Below are positions 7,755 through 29,612 of a stretch of 33,073 nucleotides of DNA, piece by piece. Position 1 is the stretch's first letter. Every line of letters begins with the position of its first letter. The translations under genes and the position numbers were made by a program. The notes under the pieces were generated by a model, which saw nothing but the letters and a program-made list of their open reading frames with translations, did no database searches and was not told where the DNA came from. Source of the DNA: a virus; the IMG/VR virus record IMGVR_UViG_3300010375_000039, positions 1 through 33,073 of that record. One strand, written 5' to 3'.

Positions 7755-10394
7755 TTAACGCCCTCGCTGTAGTCTTCTCAGTTTGCTTTTTGCCTGTGTC
7801 ATGGTCTGACGTGAAAACGCCTGGCTAATATCCTGAGCGTAAATGTTTACGTTCATGCCGCCGCCCGCCATCGCGCCGGCAAAGGCGAGAGAGTCAGAGT
7901 GCGACATAACAGAGTCGCCACTAGATCCGCTTTTGACGAGCTCTGGTCCGTGCTCGCCGCGCCAGTAATAAGTATCAGGCGGGACGTATCCGCCGCCCGC
8001 AAAGCCGCCGATCGCGCCCGCTGCCGCTGAGCCCGCGCCGCCCTCGCTGCCGCCGCCGCCAAACAAAGCGCCGATCGCGGAGATCCCAAAATGCGCGATC
8101 GTGGACCACAGACCGCCGCCGCCCTGGTCCTGGTCGCTGTTCTGACCGCCGCCTAGTAGTTTCTCGATCCGTTTTTCGAGCGCGTTGAGCGCGGCGCTTT
8201 TCAGCATTTCTAACATGCCGATCTCAAATTCTTTTATGCCCGCCTTGACGCCATGCCTAAAGCCTTCCTCGATCGCGCTGCCGATTGTAAACGTCAGGTC
8301 TGTGGCGATCTCCGTGATGCGCTCGCGCCGCAACGCTTCTTTTTCACGCTTCACGATCTCGTCAACCGTCGCCACGCGCGGCCGTCCTGTGGTTGCCGGT
8401 TCGCCGCCCACTGTCGAGCCGCCGCCAAGATCGATCCACGGCGGGCGCTCTTTGCCCTCTTTGGTAACAAAACGATCCCTGACCGTGTTTGCGACAACGC
8501 GCGCTCGCGTGACTGACAGGACCAGCTCTAATTCCTTCGCCCGCGCCATATTGCTTTCGATCCGTTGCCGCGTTGTTTCCTCGAGCGTGACCCCTTCCTC
8601 TTTCAACGTGTCGACTAATTGCTGATAGGCGTCGTCCCACTGGTCAGTCGAGGCAGTCAGCGAGTTTATAGAGCGGTCCTGGTCGCGTAGAAAATTGTCG
8701 ATCTGGTCCAAGATCCGGCCGCGTTCATCTAACACGCGGTTTCTGTTTTGCTCGTGCTCTGTGGCCTCAGCCGTCCGCTTGTTGGCGATCTCCTGTAGCG
8801 CAACCGCTTTGCCCTTTGGCAGTTTTTCGGCCGCGCGTTGCTCAGCGTCGAGCCCGGCGAGCACGGCAGCGTGCCGGCGATTCTCGATCGTCATGTATTG
8901 CGCGGCATACTCGTTGAAGTCTTTACGGCGCAACTCGAGTGATCGTTTGTTAGCGTCTTGCTCAGATTTCAGCCCGGCAATTGTGGCATCAAGCCTTAGC
9001 TTGGCAACTTGCTGCTCGATCTTCGCGGGATCTTCGCCCTTGCCCTTGCCGCCGCCCCCGCCGCCGCCGCGAGTGATGCCGAGGCGATCACTCTTTTTCT
9101 TTGTGCCGCCTGGTCCGGCGCCCACGCTGTACTCGCCCGCGCCGCCCGCGATCGCATATTCGCCAGTGTCGCCGCCGCGTACCTGAATCCCTAATTCCTG
9201 ATAGCCCGTGCCGCTTGTGATCTGTCCCTGATCGTCGACCGTAAAGACTTCGTGCGTCTTTAGGTTCATTACCTTGTTACCACCGATCGAGAGCATTCGC
9301 GGCTTTGTCTCGCCCTCAACCATGTCGCCAAAAAACGAGCCCTTGCCGAAAGTCTTGCGATAGCCCTCCATAACGATCGCTAAACCTTCGAGTATGTGTT
9401 TGACTTGCGCCGCCGCAAACTCAGCCGCCGCCACTAGATCGTCAGCCCACGTCTGCGCGTGTTGGCTGTTCTGGTCCATTGCATCGCTGACTTTATCGAG
9501 CGCCTCAGTAACGATCGGCATAAAGCGTTCACCGATCGAGCGCGTCACGCCGTCAAACCTTTGCTCTAAAATTTTCAGCTTGTCAGAAAACTCGTTTGCC
9601 GCCTTTGCGCTTTCAGTCGTGATCAGCGATCCCATTTTGCGAAACTTCTCGATCGCCCCGTCAATGTCGCCGTTCATTGAATGAATGATGCCTAAAACTT
9701 CTTTGCCGGCCTTGCCGAAAATCAGCATTGAAAGCGCCACTTGCTGATTCTCGTCTTTCACTGCCAGTAAAGCCTTGAACGTGTCGCGTAACGCCGTCTC
9801 GTTGTTTCCTAGATCAACGTGTAAGACCTTAAAGGCGGCAGACAGTCGCTTGTCGCCCTCGTTTGCCAGCTCAGCGTTTTTAGCAAAGATCCCCAGGCTC
9901 GCGCCGATCGATTGAAACTCAACGCCCGCAAGCTGACCCTCGTTTTTAAGTGTGGAAATTGTTTCCGCTGTGAAGTTTACTTTTTGCGAAAGATCATAAA
10001 TTTCGTCGCCAGCTTCGGCGGCGCGCTTAGTGAGTGCGAAGATCCCGCCCGCCGCGGCAATGCCCGCCGTTGCCACGATCCCGAAACCTAACCCGAGCCC
10101 TGACGTTGTAAGCCTCAGCTTATTGCCAACGTCAGCCATAGACGACATTTTGCCGATCGTGCTGTCTAGTGGTCCACCTAGCCCGCTGATTGAGGATTGC
10201 AAGCCGCCAAGTGACGGCCGCAACGTTTGCGTGATCTTCGTGCCGAGCCCGTGTGATGCTGTTTCGATCCGCTTAAAGTCGTCTGCCAGCGTGGCAACTT
10301 TTTTGCGAGACTCGCCATAGACGCGATCAAACTGCGAGGCGTCAAGCGTTAGCTTGGAAGTGAGACTGTAGAGCTCGAAGTTTTCACCCGCCAT
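7755..10394 (-). CDS. Tail tape measure protein
   Basis: This 879-aa protein is the tape measure: it sets tail length during assembly and is ejected ahead of the DNA. The N-terminus has the TSKLTLDASQFDRVYGESRK segment of tape-measure proteins. Residues about 99-122 (GLGLGFGIVATAGIAAAGGIFAL) form a hydrophobic, Gly/Ala-rich membrane-type segment. Long helical, Lys/Glu/Ala-rich stretches follow (about 260-320 and 460-640), and the C-terminus is Gly-rich (GGGMNVNIYAQDISQAF). A Gly-rich linker near residues 440-455 is encoded by a CCG-rich tract around 9050-9070. The ATG at 10392-10394 overlaps the stop of the frameshifted chaperone by 11 bases, the expected arrangement. By length it suggests a medium-length siphovirus tail. 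Confidence 0.93.
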   Translation of the reverse strand: MAGENFELYSLTSKLTLDASQFDRVYGESRKKVATLADDFKRIETASHGLGTKITQTLRPSLGGLQSSISGLGGPLDSTIGKMSSMADVGNKLRLTTSGLGLGFGIVATAGIAAAGGIFALTKRAAEAGDEIYDLSQKVNFTAETISTLKNEGQLAGVEFQSIGASLGIFAKNAELANEGDKRLSAAFKVLHVDLGNNETALRDTFKALLAVKDENQQVALSMLIFGKAGKEVLGIIHSMNGDIDGAIEKFRKMGSLITTESAKAANEFSDKLKILEQRFDGVTRSIGERFMPIVTEALDKVSDAMDQNSQHAQTWADDLVAAAEFAAAQVKHILEGLAIVMEGYRKTFGKGSFFGDMVEGETKPRMLSIGGNKVMNLKTHEVFTVDDQGQITSGTGYQELGIQVRGGDTGEYAIAGGAGEYSVGAGPGGTKKKSDRLGITRGGGGGGGKGKGEDPAKIEQQVAKLRLDATIAGLKSEQDANKRSLELRRKDFNEYAAQYMTIENRRHAAVLAGLDAEQRAAEKLPKGKAVALQEIANKRTAEATEHEQNRNRVLDERGRILDQIDNFLRDQDRSINSLTASTDQWDDAYQQLVDTLKEEGVTLEETTRQRIESNMARAKELELVLSVTRARVVANTVRDRFVTKEGKERPPWIDLGGGSTVGGEPATTGRPRVATVDEIVKREKEALRRERITEIATDLTFTIGSAIEEGFRHGVKAGIKEFEIGMLEMLKSAALNALEKRIEKLLGGGQNSDQDQGGGGLWSTIAHFGISAIGALFGGGGSEGGAGSAAAGAIGGFAGGGYVPPDTYYWRGEHGPELVKSGSSGDSVMSHSDSLAFAGAMAGGGMNVNIYAQDISQAFSRQTMTQAKSKLRRLQRGR

Positions 10395-19357: not shown

Positions 19358-20275
19358 TTATAGCGTGACGGCGGCGTTAGAAATGGACCACAGACGCGCG
19401 GCAGAGCGGCCGTGCATTAGTGCAATGCCGGCAAACCACTCAACGCGAGTGCGCAGCACTGGTTTTGCATCTTGCTCGCCTAGATCCTTGACGCGCATAA
19501 CTCCGTTTTGAATGCCGTGCAGCATTCCCTCGCCAAACGAAACGACATAGATCGAGGTTGCCGTGGCAGTGCCGGACGTTGCGGCCTCAGTGAACGGCAA
19601 AAACTCAGTGTCGTCCTCTTCCACGAGGATCGGCAGATCGTTGTAGACCGTCACGGGACGCCCGAAAGCGTCTTTTGTGTACGTGATAAAACCGCTCACG
19701 GTGCTGTCACGAGCCGCGGCTGTGAGTCGGCGCCGTAACGCTTTGTTCATAATTAAGTGAGTCGGATTCATAACGGCATCGATCGCCTCGTCAAGTTTGG
19801 CGAGACTCAGCGGCGTGCCGTTGGCCGTGGCGCCCGCTGCGATCTTTTGTGCGCCGGTGAGTCGCACTTGTAGGCCGTCCATAACGCGAGGATCTACTGT
19901 CGAGTCGCCTTTGATGAACGCTTGCGCCCACCCGTAAGAGAGCGCCTTGATCTTCATTTTCTCTTGTATCGCGCGCTGTCCCTGCCCGCGCGTCTCAACA
20001 ATGAAAACGTCCACGTCGAGATCGCCGCCAGCAATGTGCAACGTCTCAGTCATTGGATTGATAACGCCCGTCGATTCTGTGTAGCCCTCGTTGACGCCGC
20101 GGAAAGCGATCCCCGGCAACGATTCCTCGCGGCTGTAAGCGAGTGATCCGCCCGCGATGTCCTCAAAAGGAATTTCACGCAGTAGCGCCGAATTTTCCGC
20201 AAACAGTTCTATAACGGCGCTGCGCTTAACTTCACCCGTGTTAAGTTTTGCAGCTTCAACTAATGTGACTGCCAT
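19358..20275 (-). CDS. Major capsid protein (HK97-fold)
   Basis: This 305-aa protein forms the capsid shell. The opening MAVTLVEAAKLNTGEVKRSA is typical of phage capsid proteins of about 300 residues without a long delta domain. Further matches are SREESLPGIAFRGVNEGYTE, then the helix-rich KIKALSYGWAQAFIKGD, the PTHLIMNKALRRRLTAAARD segment (peptide-binding loop and spine helix of the A domain) and a C-terminal WFAGIALMHGRSAARLW. The AAGGAG site eight bases ahead is strong. It lies between scaffold and cement genes. The scaffold is encoded separately, so it is not fused. Confidence 0.92.
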   Translation of the reverse strand: MAVTLVEAAKLNTGEVKRSAVIELFAENSALLREIPFEDIAGGSLAYSREESLPGIAFRGVNEGYTESTGVINPMTETLHIAGGDLDVDVFIVETRGQGQRAIQEKMKIKALSYGWAQAFIKGDSTVDPRVMDGLQVRLTGAQKIAAGATANGTPLSLAKLDEAIDAVMNPTHLIMNKALRRRLTAAARDSTVSGFITYTKDAFGRPVTVYNDLPILVEEDDTEFLPFTEAATSGTATATSIYVVSFGEGMLHGIQNGVMRVKDLGEQDAKPVLRTRVEWFAGIALMHGRSAARLWSISNAAVTL

Positions 20276-20291
20276 GTAAAGGCTCCTTTAC
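20276..20291 (-). promoter_or_regulatory. Inverted repeat covering the capsid ribosome binding site
   Basis: Directly before the capsid ATG the bases form arms GTAAAG and CTTTAC with four bases between (GAGC), and one arm plus the loop contains the AAGGAG ribosome binding site. A small hairpin could partly mask the site. The 3' arm also abuts the capsid start, and the scaffold TAA lies inside the repeat. The stem is short, so a real effect is not certain. Confidence 0.4.
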
Positions 20292-21022
20292 TTCGCTGTC
20301 GCGCTCGCCGCGGCCTCTTGCTCGTTGGCGTATTTCAGCCGCTCAGTAGCGGACAGCTTGGAAACATCCACGGCGCCTAACGCCGGGCTGTTGCGGTTGA
20401 CTCGTGACCCTGTGCCGCCATTCCCTGAGTCAGCAAAAAACCAGGACTTTTGCTTTCTCAGATCGTTAGTGGCCCACGTCTCAAACGGTGTGCCGATAAA
20501 AGTATCATTAGCGCCGAGCACGCCGAGCTCTGCGGGATCGCCCGCTAGTGGCCGGACCATCTTTCGCACTGCCGCCATAGCGTCAGGCATGGCCTCAGGT
20601 ATTACGCCGGCTTTGACTAAGACAGACTCGATCGCGCGGTCAGTTATTAACTGGTTTGCCGCGTCCTCTTTCGTCTTGATCTTCGTGTCAAAGTCTGTCC
20701 GCATATCGTTGATCGCTTTCTGCGTGTCAGCGAGTGCGGCGCGTAAACCTTCGATCGTATTTAAGTCGTGCTCTTTCGTTGGCTTTTGCTGCGCTGCAAG
20801 TGCCTCTTTTGCTTTCGCAGGATCGATCCCCGCGTATGCCTTTAACTGGTTAGCCGCGGTCTGGTGCAACTGCCGCTCGTTGTCGAGTGCTGTTTGCAAA
20901 TTCGTCACGTCAGGGATCTCGCCAGTGAAAACAAAGAAGTCACCGATCGCCTCGTATGCTTTTTTGCCCTCTGCGTCGAGCGCGTCATACTCAGCCTTTG
21001 TCAGTTTTGCTTTAGTCGGCAT
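20288..21022 (-). CDS. Scaffolding protein
   Basis: This 244-aa protein precedes the capsid gene and looks like an internal scaffold. The helical body is rich in Lys, Glu, Gln and Ala (LQTALDNERQLHQTAANQLK, then LAAQQKPTKEHDLNTIEGLR), forming likely coiled coils at about residues 45-150. The C-terminal part is disordered, ending ATERLKYANEQEAAASATAK. The start taken is ATG 21020-21022 (MPTKAKLTKAEYDAL), because the 18 residues before it are Arg-rich and unlike the rest. A GAGGA lies some 14 bases upstream. No protease motif is visible in it, so removal of the scaffold would need another enzyme. Confidence 0.88.
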   Translation of the reverse strand: MPTKAKLTKAEYDALDAEGKKAYEAIGDFFVFTGEIPDVTNLQTALDNERQLHQTAANQLKAYAGIDPAKAKEALAAQQKPTKEHDLNTIEGLRAALADTQKAINDMRTDFDTKIKTKEDAANQLITDRAIESVLVKAGVIPEAMPDAMAAVRKMVRPLAGDPAELGVLGANDTFIGTPFETWATNDLRKQKSWFFADSGNGGTGSRVNRNSPALGAVDVSKLSATERLKYANEQEAAASATAK

Positions 21023-21064
21023 GGTTGTGTTGTTTATCCTCTTTCTGGAATAGAGCCGTGGTTT

Positions 21065-21086
21065 GCGCCGGATCACTCAGTCGCGC
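21065..21086. repeat. 22-bp direct repeat, copy 1 (leader of head operon)
   Basis: This copy starts GCGCCGGATCACTC and ends AGTCGCGC. It recurs unchanged at 21126-21147, 61 bases away, in the untranslated stretch ahead of the scaffold gene. The spacing is about six helical turns. It may be a protein-binding site, or a remnant of a duplication. Confidence 0.8.
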
Positions 21087-22207: not shown

Positions 22208-23482
22208 TTACGCCTCCCCCTCGCCGTACTTTGTGACGTACTCAACGAGATCCGCCCGTGCCTCTTTAATCCATTCCGCGGTTGTCACAACGCCGCAAGC
22301 GTGATCGTTGGCTTTGTAGAGGTTTTCTCTTGTTGCATCGATCGCCCTGTCGATCGCGCCGATATTTCCACGCGCCGCCAAAACCGCGAAGTGTTCAAGC
22401 AACAACTGAATGCGCGCCGATTGAACTGCGCCGCCCGCGTTGTGTGCGAGCATGGTTGTTAATGCGCTGATCTCAGTGTCGGATAGCAACTCGCCGCAAG
22501 TCTGAAAAATACTGTCAATCTCACGCGAGTTTTGAATAAAGGCAGAGACGCGCAACAGATCCTCGCGGTCCAAACGCTCGTCAGGCTGATAAAGCTCGTT
22601 GAGCATTTCCAACGTGCGAGGCTGATAGTCCTGATTGTTTCTCATTTCGTTGGCAGCTTTGAGCGTCCGCGCGGCTTGCTCCAAACGTGGCGGACTATCA
22701 TCCGCGGGATAAAGATGCGCGGCGCCCACGCGCTCATTGATCCGTATTGCGAAACGCAAATACGCCCGCTCAGACTTCATGCCCTGCGCGAGATCAAGTA
22801 ACAGATCGATCTTTGCGTCCTCGATCTCGCGGTCGATCGCCGCGGTGTCAATGGTTGCCGTCTCGCCCTTGTCGACCTCGAGCGCCGCCGGCGTTGCCGC
22901 TGGTCCACTGTCGCTTTCGTCAAGGTAGCGCGCAACGAACTCGCGGCAACTTTGCTCACAATGTCGCATCCGCTTATAAAGATGCCGCATTGCTCGCCAC
23001 GCGATCTCGTGCTTGTACTTGTTCTCCGTGTAAGACGGCGCAATGGACGCCAGCAATGCGATCAAGGCATTGCGCTGATCCTCGTCGTCCGTGTCGTCAA
23101 TTGTTTCGATCTGCGTTTCGGCCCACTCAGGCGTTGCTGTGAACGTGGCCCGTTCCGAGTGAATAGGCAACACGTCAGGATCGTTCATGCTGTTGCGCTC
23201 ACGCTCAGGCGTGTTAGTCAGCAAGTTTGAAATAATATCTGTCAACCCGATCGCATGTTTGATCGAGGCGTCCCGCGCCACGCTAACAAGATCCTCTTGT
23301 GCGTTTGTGCCGCCCGCCTTATTCAAACTCGCCAGTAATTGCACGAGCGCAAGATGTCGATTGCGAGGCGTGTTGCCGTTCAACGCCTGATCCGTCAGAC
23401 TTGCGATCTGATCTTCCGTGGTCCATGATCCGCCGTTCCCATTTGTGCCCGCTTGTGAGTTTATGTGTTGTTGAGTCTGCAT
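22208..23482 (-). CDS. Hypothetical helical protein, 424 aa
   Basis: This 424-aa protein is entirely helix-rich, with a Gly/Asn/Gln-rich first 20 residues and acidic, Ala/Leu-rich stretches (LDREDLLRVSAFIQNSREID, then LTTMLAHNAGGAVQSARIQL). It contains several Cys (CEQSCREFVARYL). A GAGGAAAC site nine bases ahead of ATG 23480-23482 supports the start. I do not recognise a family. It occupies the space between portal and capsid where a head-morphogenesis (gpF/SPP1 gp7-type) protein is usual, but I see no such motif. It could be an unrecognised head protein or a regulatory one. Confidence 0.7.
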   Translation of the reverse strand: MQTQQHINSQAGTNGNGGSWTTEDQIASLTDQALNGNTPRNRHLALVQLLASLNKAGGTNAQEDLVSVARDASIKHAIGLTDIISNLLTNTPERERNSMNDPDVLPIHSERATFTATPEWAETQIETIDDTDDEDQRNALIALLASIAPSYTENKYKHEIAWRAMRHLYKRMRHCEQSCREFVARYLDESDSGPAATPAALEVDKGETATIDTAAIDREIEDAKIDLLLDLAQGMKSERAYLRFAIRINERVGAAHLYPADDSPPRLEQAARTLKAANEMRNNQDYQPRTLEMLNELYQPDERLDREDLLRVSAFIQNSREIDSIFQTCGELLSDTEISALTTMLAHNAGGAVQSARIQLLLEHFAVLAARGNIGAIDRAIDATRENLYKANDHACGVVTTAEWIKEARADLVEYVTKYGEGEA

Positions 23483-24207: not shown

Positions 24208-25620
24208 TTAGTTGACGGCTGAGGTTGCCGCGGCAGTGCGCTCAGCGTCCGCCACGGGCAAGCCAACGCCCGGCATTTTTGGATCTTGCGGCGCCGGCGC
24301 TGGTACTGTTGGCGAGTCGTCGACCACGATCGTTATCGAGCCGCCGTCGCCGTTCTTATCCGCCTTGCCAATCATGCGAGCGTGAATGCCCAACAGTGAC
24401 TCAATGCCGTCCTGTAGTGCGCGCGCCATCGTTCCGAGCTCTGATATGCGCTCGCCCTGGTCTAACAGTTTATCCGTGGCCGTGACGGCAACCTTGTCTT
24501 TCGGCGCGATGATAGACAGGCTCAGCGCCGATATGCGTTGCTCTATATCGATCAGGCTTTGACGCGCTGAGTCAACGCCCTTGCTGTCGTGTGACTCCCA
24601 CTTTAGCTCGTCATTCTCGCCCGTGAGTTTGAAAACCACGTTAGGACCGATCTGCCTGGTCTCGTTGACGGGCGGATTATTGTCTTTCGGGACTCTGCCA
24701 TTGTTCGGCGGATCAACTTCTTTATGGACCAGGATAGGCACTAAGGCTTTCTCTTGCGTGTCGAGATATGACCACTTTTTGTAATGCTCGAGATTCAAGT
24801 ACGCGATCTCGATCAAGTATGGATCGCTGATTAGAAAGCCGCGCTTGTTTGTGTACACAACAACCACGGGCAGACGATCGAGTTTTGTGGTCCCTTTGTC
24901 GATCACTTGCTCTGTGTTGTCTTTGGGATTCTTCCGCTTTAACTCCCATTGCATAGGACCGTAGAGCGTGGGATACCCTTGCTCGTCCACTAACAGCACG
25001 GGCAACCACAACGTCCGATACTGGCAAGCAACCTTTTCGCCGTAGCGTCCTGCCTTGACTGGTGCGTGTTCTTCAAAAGTGATCTGTGTTAAGACTTCCT
25101 CGCCGTTGATCCGATCACTCAGCCAGTTAAAGGCGAGATCCTTTGTGTACATATTCCAATACGGCCGGCGTCCGCTTTTCTGTGCCTGGTATGCAGTCGA
25201 GCCCGGCGGCAAAGGCTTTTCCATATCGACAAACACAAACACGTGACCCTCGAGCGCCTTTTGCAGTAGCTCTTTCACAAACACGTCAATGTGAGTGCCG
25301 GCGAGATCGATGTTTTCAAGATGCGTTTTGATCTCCGGTGGTATGTCGTCGCCCAGGATCGGGTTTGTCTTACAGACCATGCCCACGATGCCGTTGCGGA
25401 TCTTGCGATAGGCGTTAAAAAAACTCGAGTGCGCGAGGCGCTGGTTATAGCCGCTGGTCCGTTCGCCCGGCCACTTAGGCAGATACTTAGTGCGTCCGGC
25501 CCGGATCGCCGGTGTCCCGCGTTCAACGTCGCGGACCAGCTCTAAGTCCGGCATCATATCTTGACGTGCTTTGCACTTGAAGTCTGCGCGGTTTTCGTCG
25601 TTAATTTGAACGGTTGCCAT
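24208..25620 (-). CDS. Portal protein (DUF4055-like)
   Basis: This 470-aa protein is the likely portal, the dodecameric ring through which DNA enters the head. It matches the DUF4055-type pattern: TKYLPKWPGERTSGYNQRLA, then FNAYRKIRNGIVGMVCKTNP, VFVKELLQKALEGHVFVFVD, the PYWNMYTKDLAFNW segment and RLPVVVVYTNKRG. The central part (ISDPYLIEIAYLNLEHYKKW) and the terminal helices (ALSLSIIAPKD...TATDKLLDQGERISELG) fit the wing and stem. The C-terminus is Pro/Ala-rich. I take the ATG at 25618-25620, because GAGG is nine bases ahead, over the one two codons upstream. Confidence 0.88.
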   Translation of the reverse strand: MATVQINDENRADFKCKARQDMMPDLELVRDVERGTPAIRAGRTKYLPKWPGERTSGYNQRLAHSSFFNAYRKIRNGIVGMVCKTNPILGDDIPPEIKTHLENIDLAGTHIDVFVKELLQKALEGHVFVFVDMEKPLPPGSTAYQAQKSGRRPYWNMYTKDLAFNWLSDRINGEEVLTQITFEEHAPVKAGRYGEKVACQYRTLWLPVLLVDEQGYPTLYGPMQWELKRKNPKDNTEQVIDKGTTKLDRLPVVVVYTNKRGFLISDPYLIEIAYLNLEHYKKWSYLDTQEKALVPILVHKEVDPPNNGRVPKDNNPPVNETRQIGPNVVFKLTGENDELKWESHDSKGVDSARQSLIDIEQRISALSLSIIAPKDKVAVTATDKLLDQGERISELGTMARALQDGIESLLGIHARMIGKADKNGDGGSITIVVDDSPTVPAPAPQDPKMPGVGLPVADAERTAAATSAVN

Positions 25621-25644
25621 AATCATTAACCTCGTGCTGTTAGC

Positions 25645-26979
25645 CTACCAGCCCACTTGCTGAACGCCGCCGCGGCGTGGCGCGCTGTCGGCAATCAATA
25701 ACTCAGTGAATCCCCAAACCATCGCGTCTAATCTGTTCGGACTCTCTTTGCCTTTGATAGGTTCCCACGTGCAAAGCTCGTCCTCGAGATCGGGAAAGTC
25801 GCCCACGAGAAAGCCGCGGCGTGTTGGCTTGATCTCGTCAACCTCGAAAAACGCGGCCACGGGCTCAGCGCGCGCCGCTTTGCCGTGCGAGGCATAAACG
25901 ATCTTAACCTTAATATCAGGATCGATCCCGTTAATTATCGTTGTGATCATTTCGCCGCCCTGGTTTCCCTCAGCCACGATCGCGTCAGCGTTGAGCCTGT
26001 AGTAAAGATTGACGGCGGCTGTGGCCCACGTGGTAGGACTTCCCTGTACACTCGCATCCTCTAAAACATAGCCGCCCCAGTTATGACGGCCCACGCCGAT
26101 TATCCCGGCCTCGTCGCCGGCGCTGGTAGTTGACGGATCAACCGCGACCACGATGCGATCAAACTCGCGCTCAGCCGTCGCCAACACGCGCGAGGCTTCG
26201 CAGAGATCACGAGTCCACAAAGCGCCCGGCGCCTGGTCCACGTCCTCAACTAGGATCTCGATCCGGTAACTGAGCGCCGTCATATCTTGCGCGAGATCGC
26301 GTATCGCCGCGGCGCTTATGTGAGGATTATCAAAACTCGAAAACTTGAAAGTGACATAACGGCCCGTTTTGTCGGCCTTTGCTTTGTTGTAAAACTTGGC
26401 GGCGTGTTGTGGATCGTCTGCCTTGCTCGTGCCCTCGCTGTGAAGTGACGGCGGCGTGAATCCGAAACAGGCATCACCGTCACGGTCTGCGAGTAGAGGC
26501 GCGCCCGCTGAGTCCCACGTTGCCTCTGCCATTAGCTGAAACTCGTCAAGATAAAGATCGTCGCACCAGTCGCCGCGCAACTGTGACGGGTTCCAGGCTG
26601 TCATAGCTTGGATCGAAACGTCCGTGCCGGGAAACTCTATTATGTGCTCTGTCTCGTTTTTGTGTAGTACGCCTTGCTCGATCAGCGGCGCGAGTGCGCG
26701 ACATACTACGGTCCAAAAGCGCCGTAACTGTTTCGCCGTAGGCGCTGCGTATATCTGACGTCGCCCTTTGAGGAAACGTTTACACGCACGGATCGCAAAG
26801 CCTTTAGTTTTGCCGCCGCGGCGCCCGGCCTTAACAACTATTCTCTTTGCGGTACAGTTTACAAACTGCGCTTGTTTAGGATGCGGCTGCGGGATCGTTA
26901 CCTTGATCGTCCGCGACCTCGAACCCTGCGGAATAATCGGCAACGGTCTGCCGCTGGTGATAACTGTGATCGCATTCAT
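25645..26979 (-). CDS. terL: Terminase large subunit
   Basis: This 444-aa protein is the packaging motor and nuclease. The N-terminal ATPase has Walker A AGRRGGKT at residues 51-58 and Walker B LYLDE at 142-146, with an adenine-type AAPT before them. The C-terminal RNase H-like nuclease shows its acidic triad: D281 in VAVDPS, E337 in AEGNQGG and D418 in NRLDAMVWG. The start ATGA overlaps the small-subunit stop by four bases, so translation is coupled. No intein or split is visible. It is a complete, ordinary terminase of the type that pairs with a DUF4055-like portal. Confidence 0.95.
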   Translation of the reverse strand: MNAITVITSGRPLPIIPQGSRSRTIKVTIPQPHPKQAQFVNCTAKRIVVKAGRRGGKTKGFAIRACKRFLKGRRQIYAAPTAKQLRRFWTVVCRALAPLIEQGVLHKNETEHIIEFPGTDVSIQAMTAWNPSQLRGDWCDDLYLDEFQLMAEATWDSAGAPLLADRDGDACFGFTPPSLHSEGTSKADDPQHAAKFYNKAKADKTGRYVTFKFSSFDNPHISAAAIRDLAQDMTALSYRIEILVEDVDQAPGALWTRDLCEASRVLATAEREFDRIVVAVDPSTTSAGDEAGIIGVGRHNWGGYVLEDASVQGSPTTWATAAVNLYYRLNADAIVAEGNQGGEMITTIINGIDPDIKVKIVYASHGKAARAEPVAAFFEVDEIKPTRRGFLVGDFPDLEDELCTWEPIKGKESPNRLDAMVWGFTELLIADSAPRRGGVQQVGW

Positions 26980-27413
26980 TCGCTATCAGGCGCGTCCGGC
27001 GCCGTCTCTTGCACAAACTCAACCTCGATCCTGAGCGGCCCGCCGTCCACGCCGCCTAGCTCGATCTTGCTGTTGTCCCTGTAAATTGTTGGCCGGCGAG
27101 CTCTGAGTAGGAATTGCGCGTTAGAGTCTGAAAACTTTGTGACTGATCCGGTTTCCTCGCCCTGGTAAAAAACAGGCTCTTGCCATCCGTCCAACGCGCG
27201 CTCATAAACCTTAGACTCGAGCGCGTCCGTGTGCTTCTCTACCACGTCATCCCACTCAACGCGGAAACTTTCAACCTCTGATTTCCACTTGTACGCTGCC
27301 GTCCGGCCTATGCCGATCACTTCGCAAGCGTCAGAGACGTTGCCGCGCGATTTATCTAACGCCGCTATAAACGCCTCGCGGTTTTTCTTTGTCCTGATTG
27401 ATCGGTTTGCCAT
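26976..27413 (-). CDS. terS: Terminase small subunit
   Basis: This 145-aa protein begins with a helix-turn-helix (KKNREAFIAALDKSRGNVSD then ACEVIGIGRTAAYKWKSEV), the DNA-recognition part of many small terminases. A middle helix (FRVEWDDVVEKHTDALESKV YERAL) and the RARRPTIYRDNSKIELGG segment (frequent in this family) follow. The C-terminus is acidic and Pro-rich. It overlaps the large subunit by four bases, the usual arrangement. The pac or cos site is not visible with confidence. Confidence 0.9.
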   Translation of the reverse strand: MANRSIRTKKNREAFIAALDKSRGNVSDACEVIGIGRTAAYKWKSEVESFRVEWDDVVEKHTDALESKVYERALDGWQEPVFYQGEETGSVTKFSDSNAQFLLRARRPTIYRDNSKIELGGVDGGPLRIEVEFVQETAPDAPDSE

Positions 27414-27423
27414 AGATGCTCTG

Positions 27424-27990
27424 TCATTCTTCCAGGCTCAGAATCGTAAATGGTGGCCGGATCTCGCGGTTGAGCTCTGCCGCTGCCTCGAGCGCGCACG
27501 TAACAACGAGCTCGCCACTGATAGGCTTAGGTAGTCGCTGGTATGCGGTAAACATCGCGGCCCGTGCTTCCACAGCGCCGCTGCCCGCCGCCTGGTACGG
27601 CGTGGCGATCTCTGTCGCGGAATAACTGCCGTCGATGCAAAAGATCCTACCCTTGATCGCAACGAGACAACGGCCGTCCATTATCGTTTCTGGTCCGTCG
27701 CTGTCGCTGTTTTTACACTCGCCGCCGTGCTCTTTTAGGCACTCGCGCAAGGCAGCACAAAAGTCTTTCACAAAGTAAGCGGCGAGATCGCCTTTGATTT
27801 CAGGCGGCGCAAAGACGTGACGGATCAACTGTGACACGCGGCTTGTGCCGGACACGCCGATCAAAAACTTGCCATGCTGAAAGACTTTCGGCGTTGCTGT
27901 GACCAGTGAACTATCACCAGAATCTAGGCCCGCGTCCGCGCCCATCCACACGATCCCGTTTTCATCTTTTGCCGCTGCAATACAAGTCAC
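27424..27990 (-). CDS. Proteasome beta-subunit-like Ntn hydrolase
   Basis: This 188-aa product starts GTG at 27988-27990, which overlaps the TGA of the upstream gene (GTGA). After Met removal it begins T-C-I-A-A-A, so Thr would be the N-terminal nucleophile. The family layout follows: a GADAGLDSG with Asp near residue 18 (cf. Asp17 of proteasome), TPKVFQHG with Lys near 34 (cf. Lys33), and FLIGVSGTSRVSQLIRHVFA. A later GSGAVEARAAMF matches the Ser/Gly-rich loop. An upstream in-frame ATG (28014) would put eight residues ahead of the Thr, so I prefer GTG. Related phage proteins are known, but the substrate is unknown. It sits immediately before the terminase genes. Confidence 0.85.
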   Translation of the reverse strand: MTCIAAAKDENGIVWMGADAGLDSGDSSLVTATPKVFQHGKFLIGVSGTSRVSQLIRHVFAPPEIKGDLAAYFVKDFCAALRECLKEHGGECKNSDSDGPETIMDGRCLVAIKGRIFCIDGSYSATEIATPYQAAGSGAVEARAAMFTAYQRLPKPISGELVVTCALEAAAELNREIRPPFTILSLEE

Positions 27991-28184
27991 TTGATCACAC
28001 GATCTGGTCCACACGCCGGATCAACCGCGAGCACAATCCGGCAACTCTGCAATGGACCATGCTCGCGCTCTAATTCCTCGAGCGTTTTCGTTGTGTACCA
28101 CACGCGATCACCGTCCCTGTGTAGCACGGGCATCAACTCGCGTTGACGCTGTTGGATCTCTTGCCATTGGTTTATTGCGTCCAT
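27987..28184 (-). CDS. Hypothetical protein, 65 aa
   Basis: This small protein (DAINQWQEIQQRQRELMPVL, then HRDGDRVWYTTKTLEELERE) has a helical start and a short hydrophobic IVLAVDPACGPDRVIK end. Its TGA overlaps the GTG of the Ntn-hydrolase gene (27987-27990), so the two are translationally coupled. I do not recognise it. The coupling suggests a partner, chaperone or regulator of the hydrolase. Confidence 0.65.
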   Translation of the reverse strand: MDAINQWQEIQQRQRELMPVLHRDGDRVWYTTKTLEELEREHGPLQSCRIVLAVDPACGPDRVIK

Positions 28185-29192: not shown

Positions 29193-29612
29193 CTAAGGCG
29201 TGGTTGTGTCGCCCGTGTGTTGCTCGAAAGTGCCGCCGCGGCTGACGATCTCGCCGTAGATTTCCGTCAGGACCGTATACATGCCCTTTGCCATTGCCTG
29301 TTGAGGTTTGCTTTGTGGCTCGTAAGGCTGATTAAGAATGTAAACGCTCGAGCCCTCTGGCAGCGGTTGACCAGGCTTGCCGCGCATCCATTTTCTGAGC
29401 GTCCGTGCCGTGGCGCATCCCTCAACTATGTAATCCTGATCGGCGTGCTCGTCCATCCAACGCGCCGCGGCCTCGCTTGCCTCTGACCATCCGAGCCCGA
29501 TCAGCGCGTCTGTGTTGAGCACGTGCTTTATGCCGTGCTGATATGCCAGCTTTTCAGCAAGCGAGCTCTTGCCCGTCGATGGACCACCAGTGATAAAGAT
29601 TCTCTTTGCCAT
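29193..29612 (-). CDS. P-loop NTPase, small kinase-like protein
   Basis: This 139-aa protein opens MAKRIFITGGPSTGKSSLAE, with a Walker A GGPSTGKSS at residues 9-17, as in nucleotide or small-molecule kinases. A DALIGLGWSE acidic segment and a DYIVEGCATARTLRKWMRGK region (Arg-rich lid-like) follow. It is short compared with a full dNMP kinase. Phosphate transfer to a nucleotide or nucleotide-sugar is possible, but the substrate cannot be told. The C-terminus is polar and probably not structured. Confidence 0.78.
   Translation of the reverse strand: MAKRIFITGGPSTGKSSLAEKLAYQHGIKHVLNTDALIGLGWSEASEAAARWMDEHADQDYIVEGCATARTLRKWMRGKPGQPLPEGSSVYILNQPYEPQSKPQQAMAKGMYTVLTEIYGEIVSRGGTFEQHTGDTTTP

What the first reader, a model, noticed from the sequence alone, without database searches (positions are those of the whole stretch)
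27424..27990. Phage proteasome-beta-like Ntn hydrolase ahead of terminase
Seen: a GTG start in a GTGA overlap places Thr directly after Met, Asp near position 18 and Lys near 34 match the proteasome T1/D17/K33 scheme, and the gene sits just before the terminase genes. Known: Ntn hydrolases cleave peptide or amide bonds with an N-terminal nucleophile, and phage homologues exist with poorly known roles. Inferred: with no other head protease visible, it could act in capsid maturation or scaffold removal, or attack a host or defence protein.
Basis: partly seen in the sequence, partly recalled or inferred. Interest (0 to 1): 0.75.

Follow-up and report, generated by a model that had tools for sequence, protein, structure and literature searches.

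The report
Phage proteasome-like protease beside packaging genes
A small bacterial virus carries an intact gene for a proteasome-type protein-cutting enzyme directly before its DNA-packaging genes, and distant relatives of that gene sit beside packaging genes in many unrelated phages, usually together with a conventional head protease, so it is probably an extra late-stage protease rather than the head-maturation enzyme.

Summary
It belongs to the proteasome-like family: PHROG 1040 'peptidase HslV family' (E 4e-14), a confident AlphaFold model (pLDDT 92), and a match to the bacterial homologue BPH at Z 22.5. Across 127 viral homologues Thr1, Asp17, Lys33 and Gly47 are invariant wherever present; a start codon directly precedes Thr in 121 of 125. 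It fits the published group I 'AAH' type; PPH is excluded.

Function: the idea that it replaces a missing head protease is not supported. In 7 of 7 HK97-type head modules read with Ntn beside TerL or portal, a canonical prohead protease is also present. The nearest terminase relative (75%) lacks the gene.

The packaging-gene neighbourhood is nevertheless real and recurrent. In phage contigs of 35-70 kb, TerL lies within 1 kb on the same strand in 15 of 35 non-redundant cases (3.0 expected, P about 7e-8), spanning at least 22 terminase clusters and several unrelated TerL families. The 2021 survey reported no informative context. Best reading: an accessory, late-expressed, self-compartmentalising threonine peptidase; substrate unknown.

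The parts
27424..27990 (-). proteasome-like Ntn hydrolase (AAH-type, group I), 188 aa, GTG start
   Evidence: PHROG 1040 E 4e-14; AF2 model pLDDT 92.3; BPH Z 22.5
27985..27987 (-). codon of Thr1, the predicted N-terminal nucleophile (residue 2)
   Evidence: T in 125 of 125 viral homologues that reach this position; model residue 2 opens the alignment at chain residue 1 of BPH
27934..27936 (-). codon of the Asp17 equivalent (residue 19)
   Evidence: D in 126 of 126
27886..27888 (-). codon of the Lys33 equivalent (residue 35)
   Evidence: K in 127 of 127
27856..27858 (-). codon of the Gly47 (oxyanion hole) equivalent (residue 45)
   Evidence: G in 127 of 127
27577..27585 (-). GSG motif, residues 136-138 (Ser129 region of proteasomes); most phage relatives have GCG
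27670..27735 (-). acidic pore-loop-like segment, residues 86-107, after the first pair of helices
   Evidence: low pLDDT block 63-81 and mostly no secondary structure; sequence
27987..28184 (-). small upstream gene (65 aa) whose stop overlaps the Ntn start; unknown function
26976..27413 (-). terminase small subunit
   Evidence: PHROG 4044 E 1e-27
25645..26979 (-). terminase large subunit
   Evidence: PHROG 2 E 8e-31, Terminase_6C
24208..25626 (-). portal protein
   Evidence: PHROG 145 E 8e-72
20288..21076 (-). separate head scaffolding protein
   Evidence: PHROG 206 E 7e-21
19358..20275 (-). major head protein, GP7 type
   Evidence: PHROG 212 E 4e-89; PF20911 E 9e-13

Best explanation
The gene encodes a proteasome-like threonine hydrolase of group I, most probably the AAH subfamily. 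Shown by sequence and model: the Ntn fold, the Thr1-Asp17-Lys33-Gly47 site, no propeptide at the likely start, and a position directly ahead of TerS-TerL-portal on the same strand. Inferred: host methionine aminopeptidase removes the start Met and exposes Thr1; subunits assemble into a closed ring or double ring, as in BPH and HslV, with the active sites inside; substrates enter without a dedicated AAA+ unfoldase; the enzyme is made late, with the packaging and head proteins. I think its most likely job is accessory proteolysis during virion assembly and packaging, removing or trimming unfolded or surplus phage proteins. It is not the head-maturation protease.
For: Fold and site: PHROG 1040, profile match to BPH, HslV and proteasome beta starting at Thr1, AF2 pLDDT 92.3 and pTM 0.89, BPH TM 0.80, Z 22.5 with rmsd 2.1 over 174 residues, invariant T/D/K/G in 127 viral homologues. 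Location: TerL within 1 kb on the same strand in 15 of 35 non-redundant contigs of 35-70 kb against 3.0 expected, P 6.5e-8; 22 TerL clusters at 40% identity. The gene is repeatedly between TerL and portal and beside TerL of PHROGs 2, 9 and 15, or directly after the portal in a phage with a PHROG 38 TerL. Not the maturase: a prohead protease is also present in L094, L096, L097, L098, L106, L127 and L140. Accessory: absent from L014 (75% TerL identity) and from all 75 TerL relatives within the DNA held. No AAA+ unfoldase was found among the window genes scanned.
Against: No substrate, activity, assembly state or expression time was measured. Purified BPH showed no activity in the published assays (PMC5777263). 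In phage contigs above 100 kb the relatives are not near packaging genes; 9 of 16 lie beside a NAD-dependent DNA ligase, so one common role in packaging is not shown. The slot near TerL could simply be a place where accessory genes settle. The window protein is a long branch without a supported clade and departs from the family in the likely S1-pocket loop (F50 to S, M52 to V).
Confidence: 0.5

Rival explanations
1. It is a counter-defence or host-directed protease carried in the late operon: it removes a host or defence protein during infection, and its place beside the terminase reflects only late expression and a tolerant insertion site.
For: Patchy presence and absence from the nearest terminase relatives; two quite different genomic settings in mid-size and large phages; relatives on plasmids and chromosomes without conserved neighbours.
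Against: No linkage to known anti-defence genes was seen in the neighbourhoods read; late genes are a poor place for counter-defence that must act early; the TerL link is too frequent for scattered insertion.
Confidence: 0.25
2. It is the head-maturation protease of this phage: it cleaves scaffold, capsid or portal during prohead maturation.
For: No other head protease was found in the window's head module; in L140 the gene lies between portal and the prohead protease, and in L155 between portal and scaffold.
Against: A canonical prohead protease co-occurs in the HK97-type relatives and a weak or fused one in L277 and L264; the window has a separate scaffold and a short GP7-type capsid protein; the closest terminase relative lacks the gene. 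A closed ring with inward-facing sites is an unlikely shape for cutting an assembled shell.
Confidence: 0.1
3. It works on amide bonds in another way, as a highly specific peptide ligase or single-substrate processing enzyme in the manner of connectase, not as a degradative chamber.
For: The proteasome-like family includes connectase, a monomeric ligase (PMC8665760); BPH has no detected protease activity (PMC5777263); the window's S1-pocket loop is unusual.
Against: Both flanking helix pairs that make ring contacts are predicted here, whereas connectase lacks the first pair (PMC8665760).
Confidence: 0.1

Closest known systems
[quoted passage not shown] Fuchs, Alva and Lupas 2021, PMC8665760)
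   Same: Group I proteasome-like protein, compact, no propeptide, reported from phages; the bacterial relatives found here are mostly alpha-proteobacteria and actinobacteria.
BPH (betaproteobacterial proteasome homologue; PDB 5ovs, 5ovt, 5ovu; PMC5777263)
   Same: Best structural match, Z 22.5; Thr-Cys at the N-terminus; acidic pore loop; no partner unfoldase known.
   Different: Only about 25% identity; the heptameric double ring of BPH was not tested for this protein; the BPH row of the 2021 survey marks no phages.
HslV (ClpQ)
   Same: Same fold (Z about 20-21), same catalytic residues, PHROG named 'peptidase HslV family'.
   Different: No HslU or other AAA+ unfoldase seen among the window genes scanned; about 20% identity.
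PPH (proteasome homologue of phages and their hosts)
   Same: A phage-borne member of the same group I.
   Different: PPH is about 140 residues and lacks helix H2; this protein has 188 residues and all four helices.
Canonical prohead proteases (PHROG 80 and related)
   Same: Proteases encoded in phage head modules.
   Different: Different families; they occur together with the Ntn gene in relatives.

Membership tests
proteasome-like family (proteasome beta, HslV, BPH and kin) | N-terminal Thr/Ser nucleophile with Asp17, Lys33 and Gly47 | tested here: met
   invariant in 127 viral homologues where the position is present
proteasome-like family (proteasome beta, HslV, BPH and kin) | four-layer alpha-beta-beta-alpha fold | tested here: met
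   AF2 model pLDDT 92.3; Foldseek and VIA-align hits to BPH, HslV and proteasome beta
proteasome-like family (proteasome beta, HslV, BPH and kin) | hydrolase activity with Thr1 as nucleophile | not testable with these tools
   needs purified protein
AAH subfamily | sequence cluster with the published AAH set (representative WP_035979212) | not tested
   the published alignments and that accession are not held here
AAH subfamily | relatives in alpha-proteobacteria, actinobacteria and phages | tested here: met
group I (BPH, AAH, CPH, HslV) | compact subunit without the C-terminal S12/H5 elements, helices H1-H4 present | tested here: met
   secondary structure of the model: helices 50-58, 69-87, 139-152, 159-173, last strand 182-186
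BPH | tetradecameric double ring with acidic pore loop | not testable with these tools
   loop 86-107 is acidic and of low confidence; assembly not predicted
PPH | about 140 residues, no helix H2 | tested here: not met
   188 residues, helix 69-87 present
HslV | works with the AAA+ unfoldase HslU | tested here: inconclusive
   no unfoldase among the window genes scanned; the record may be a fragment and a host HslU cannot be excluded
bacterial 20S proteasome beta subunit (TIGR03690) | score above the curated cut-off of 191.9 bits | tested here: not met
   15.3 bits
prohead maturation protease | sequence similarity to known prohead protease families | tested here: not met
   only PHROG 1040 and a non-significant hit
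prohead maturation protease | cleaves head proteins in the assembling virion | not testable with these tools
   needs virion proteomics

The most novel reading that the evidence does not exclude
Tailed phages of many unrelated packaging lineages carry a small proteasome-like chamber that works as a dedicated part of head assembly or genome packaging, next to and distinct from the prohead protease, for example clearing portal, terminase or scaffold intermediates; this would be a new step in virion assembly.
Probability: 0.3. Interest if true: 0.85.

Novelty: new member of a known kind. Interest (0 to 1): 0.55.

Why it matters
Phage proteasome homologues were listed in 2021 with the remark that no genomic context suggested a function (PMC8665760). 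The recurrent link to the terminase and portal genes found here gives a concrete hint for the mid-size phages, separates them from the large phages in which the gene often sits beside a DNA ligase, and makes the question testable in a cultured phage. If the link is functional, virion assembly in some phages uses a proteasome-like chamber in addition to the classical head protease.

Tried and rejected
Single-protein scans with the window protein found no relative in viral or genome contigs: it has no close kin there, so selection on this copy could not be measured. Chromosomal and plasmid relatives were checked for conserved neighbours as a guide to function: none were found apart from the nif region in some rhizobia. 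The tree was used to ask whether the packaging context is one clade; deep branches are unsupported, so the number of origins is not settled. The random-position test assumes one TerL per contig and counts only TerL recognised near the gene, so the observed count is a lower bound; contigs may be fragments. In one search short fragments inflated the null, so one search was restricted to contigs of 35-70 kb. Literature searches for a phage proteasome homologue with a packaging role found none; most subscription papers are not held.

Full report
Observation. The window is a 33,073-base virus record, classed 'linear' and possibly a fragment. The named gene exists at 27424-27990 but on the minus strand: GTG at 27990, stop at 27424, 188 residues. 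The GTG overlaps the stop of a 65-residue gene (27987-28184) as GTGA. The product begins M-T-C-I-A-A, with Asp at residue 19 and Lys at residue 35. TerS starts 10 bases after the gene, followed by TerL and portal, then several genes of unknown function, a separate scaffold and the major head protein.

Family. Pfam gives nothing, PHROG 1040 'peptidase HslV family' gives E 4.1e-14, and a single-sequence search of the PDB gives BPH, a bacterial proteasome homologue, at E 3.5e-4. An alignment of 58 sequences used as a profile matches BPH (8.6e-9), HslV and proteasome beta, starting at the catalytic Thr. The AlphaFold model built from it has mean pLDDT 92.3 and pTM 0.89. Its best solved relatives are BPH (TM 0.80; Z 22.5, rmsd 2.1 over 174 residues), then HslV and proteasome beta.

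Active site. Among 127 viral homologues (the window included), Thr1 is present in all 125 that reach it, Asp17 in all 126, Lys33 and Gly47 in all 127. A start codon directly precedes Thr in 121 of 125; four have a short Met-Lys-Asn-Leu leader. Residue 129, Ser in proteasomes, is Cys in 108 of 127 relatives and Ser in the window. The window departs from the family in a loop that likely lines the S1 pocket: F50 is Ser (the only case in 127) and M52 is Val.

Subfamily. The 2021 survey of proteasome homologues (PMC8665760) described AAH and PPH in phages. PPH is about 140 residues and lacks helix H2, which this protein has. Relatives found here lie in alpha-proteobacteria (Azospirillum, rhizobia), actinobacteria (Frankia, Dactylosporangium, Streptomyces) and phages, which is the published AAH distribution. 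I call it AAH-type, not confirmed AAH, because the published sequences could not be compared.

Genomic setting. Scans of viral contigs returned 77 relatives and then 378 with the larger profile, of which 80 were kept; 127 loci counting the window, or 97 at 80% identity, were analysed. In phage contigs of 35-70 kb with flanks, TerL lies within 1 kb on the same strand in 15 of 35 cases, against 3.0 expected for a random position (P 6.5e-8); within 3 kb it is 17 of 34 against 5.7. Thirty-two TerL-linked loci fall into 22 TerL clusters at 40% identity. The commonest order is TerL-Ntn-portal (for example L094, L096, L098, L106, L108, L128). In others the gene is just ahead of TerL (L097, L138, L254, L165; in the window TerS lies between) or after portal (L140, L155). 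TerL families beside it include PHROG 2, 9 and 15. In a 39 kb phage record, OX376640 (L005), the gene directly follows the portal, downstream of a PHROG 38 TerL. In contigs above 100 kb none of 16 is near TerL and 9 lie beside a NAD-dependent DNA ligase; isolates of large phages often have it among nucleotide-metabolism genes.

Is it the head protease? In every HK97-type head module I read with Ntn beside TerL or portal (L094, L096, L097, L098, L106, L127, L140) a canonical prohead protease is also encoded; L264 has one fused to its capsid protein and L277 a weak match. The window has a separate scaffold and a GP7-type capsid protein; from general knowledge, phages with a separate scaffold of this sort (P22, SPP1) release it without a protease. 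The closest terminase relative, L014 (TerL 75%, portal 55%, TerS 45%), lacks the gene, as do all 75 TerL relatives over the DNA held. The gene is therefore accessory, and 'no other protease visible' is not evidence that it matures the capsid.

Mechanism proposed. Shown: intact gene, conserved site, confident fold, operon-like position. Inferred: Met removal exposes Thr1; ring assembly as in BPH; no dedicated unfoldase; late expression; proteolysis of phage proteins during assembly and packaging. The acidic loop 86-107 lies where BPH has its acidic pore loop, which BPH's authors link to substrate recognition in the absence of a known unfoldase (PMC5777263). The same authors found no activity for BPH, so activity should not be taken for granted.

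What would settle it. N-terminal sequencing, assembly state, inhibitor labelling, gene removal in a cultured phage with virion proteomics, and a defence panel, as listed. Overall: a new member of a known enzyme family in a neighbourhood whose recurrence I did not find described in the papers held here.

Noticed in passing
L099, L107, L110, L112, L115, L117, L118, L120, L124, L126, L129, L130, L143, L147, L148, L158 and others: In a large-phage lineage the Ntn gene is followed, directly or within about 1.5 kb, by a NAD-dependent DNA ligase; the gene before it in L112 is a metal-dependent phosphohydrolase.
   Followed up: partly
L100, L160, L114, L282: Two adjacent Ntn genes in tandem, both keeping M-T, Asp and Lys, in large phages; they could form a mixed ring.
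   Followed up: partly
L091, L187, L188: In Sinorhizobium, Ensifer and Allorhizobium the bacterial relative lies close to nifQ and rpoN; in L091 and L187 also nifS, nifW and fixAB. Relatives are also common in other nitrogen-fixing genera (Azospirillum, Frankia).
   Followed up: partly
L004:8001-8660, L100:7575-8270: Lys/Ala/Pro-rich C-terminal tails on some large-phage Ntn proteins, resembling nucleic-acid-binding tails.
   Followed up: no
L002:8001-8558: The Moorella phage gene is annotated from 8043; a TTG start at 8001, with Thr next as in the family, lies 42 bases upstream.
   Followed up: no
L117, L126, L134, L169: Four homologues have Leu instead of a start codon before Thr, with an ATG three codons further upstream (Met-Lys-Asn-Leu), a possible short propeptide.
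   Followed up: no
window 29193-29612: Short P-loop (AAA_28-type) nucleotide-kinase-like protein, not an unfoldase.
   Followed up: no
window 22208-23482: 424-residue gene between portal and scaffold without a significant family match.
   Followed up: no
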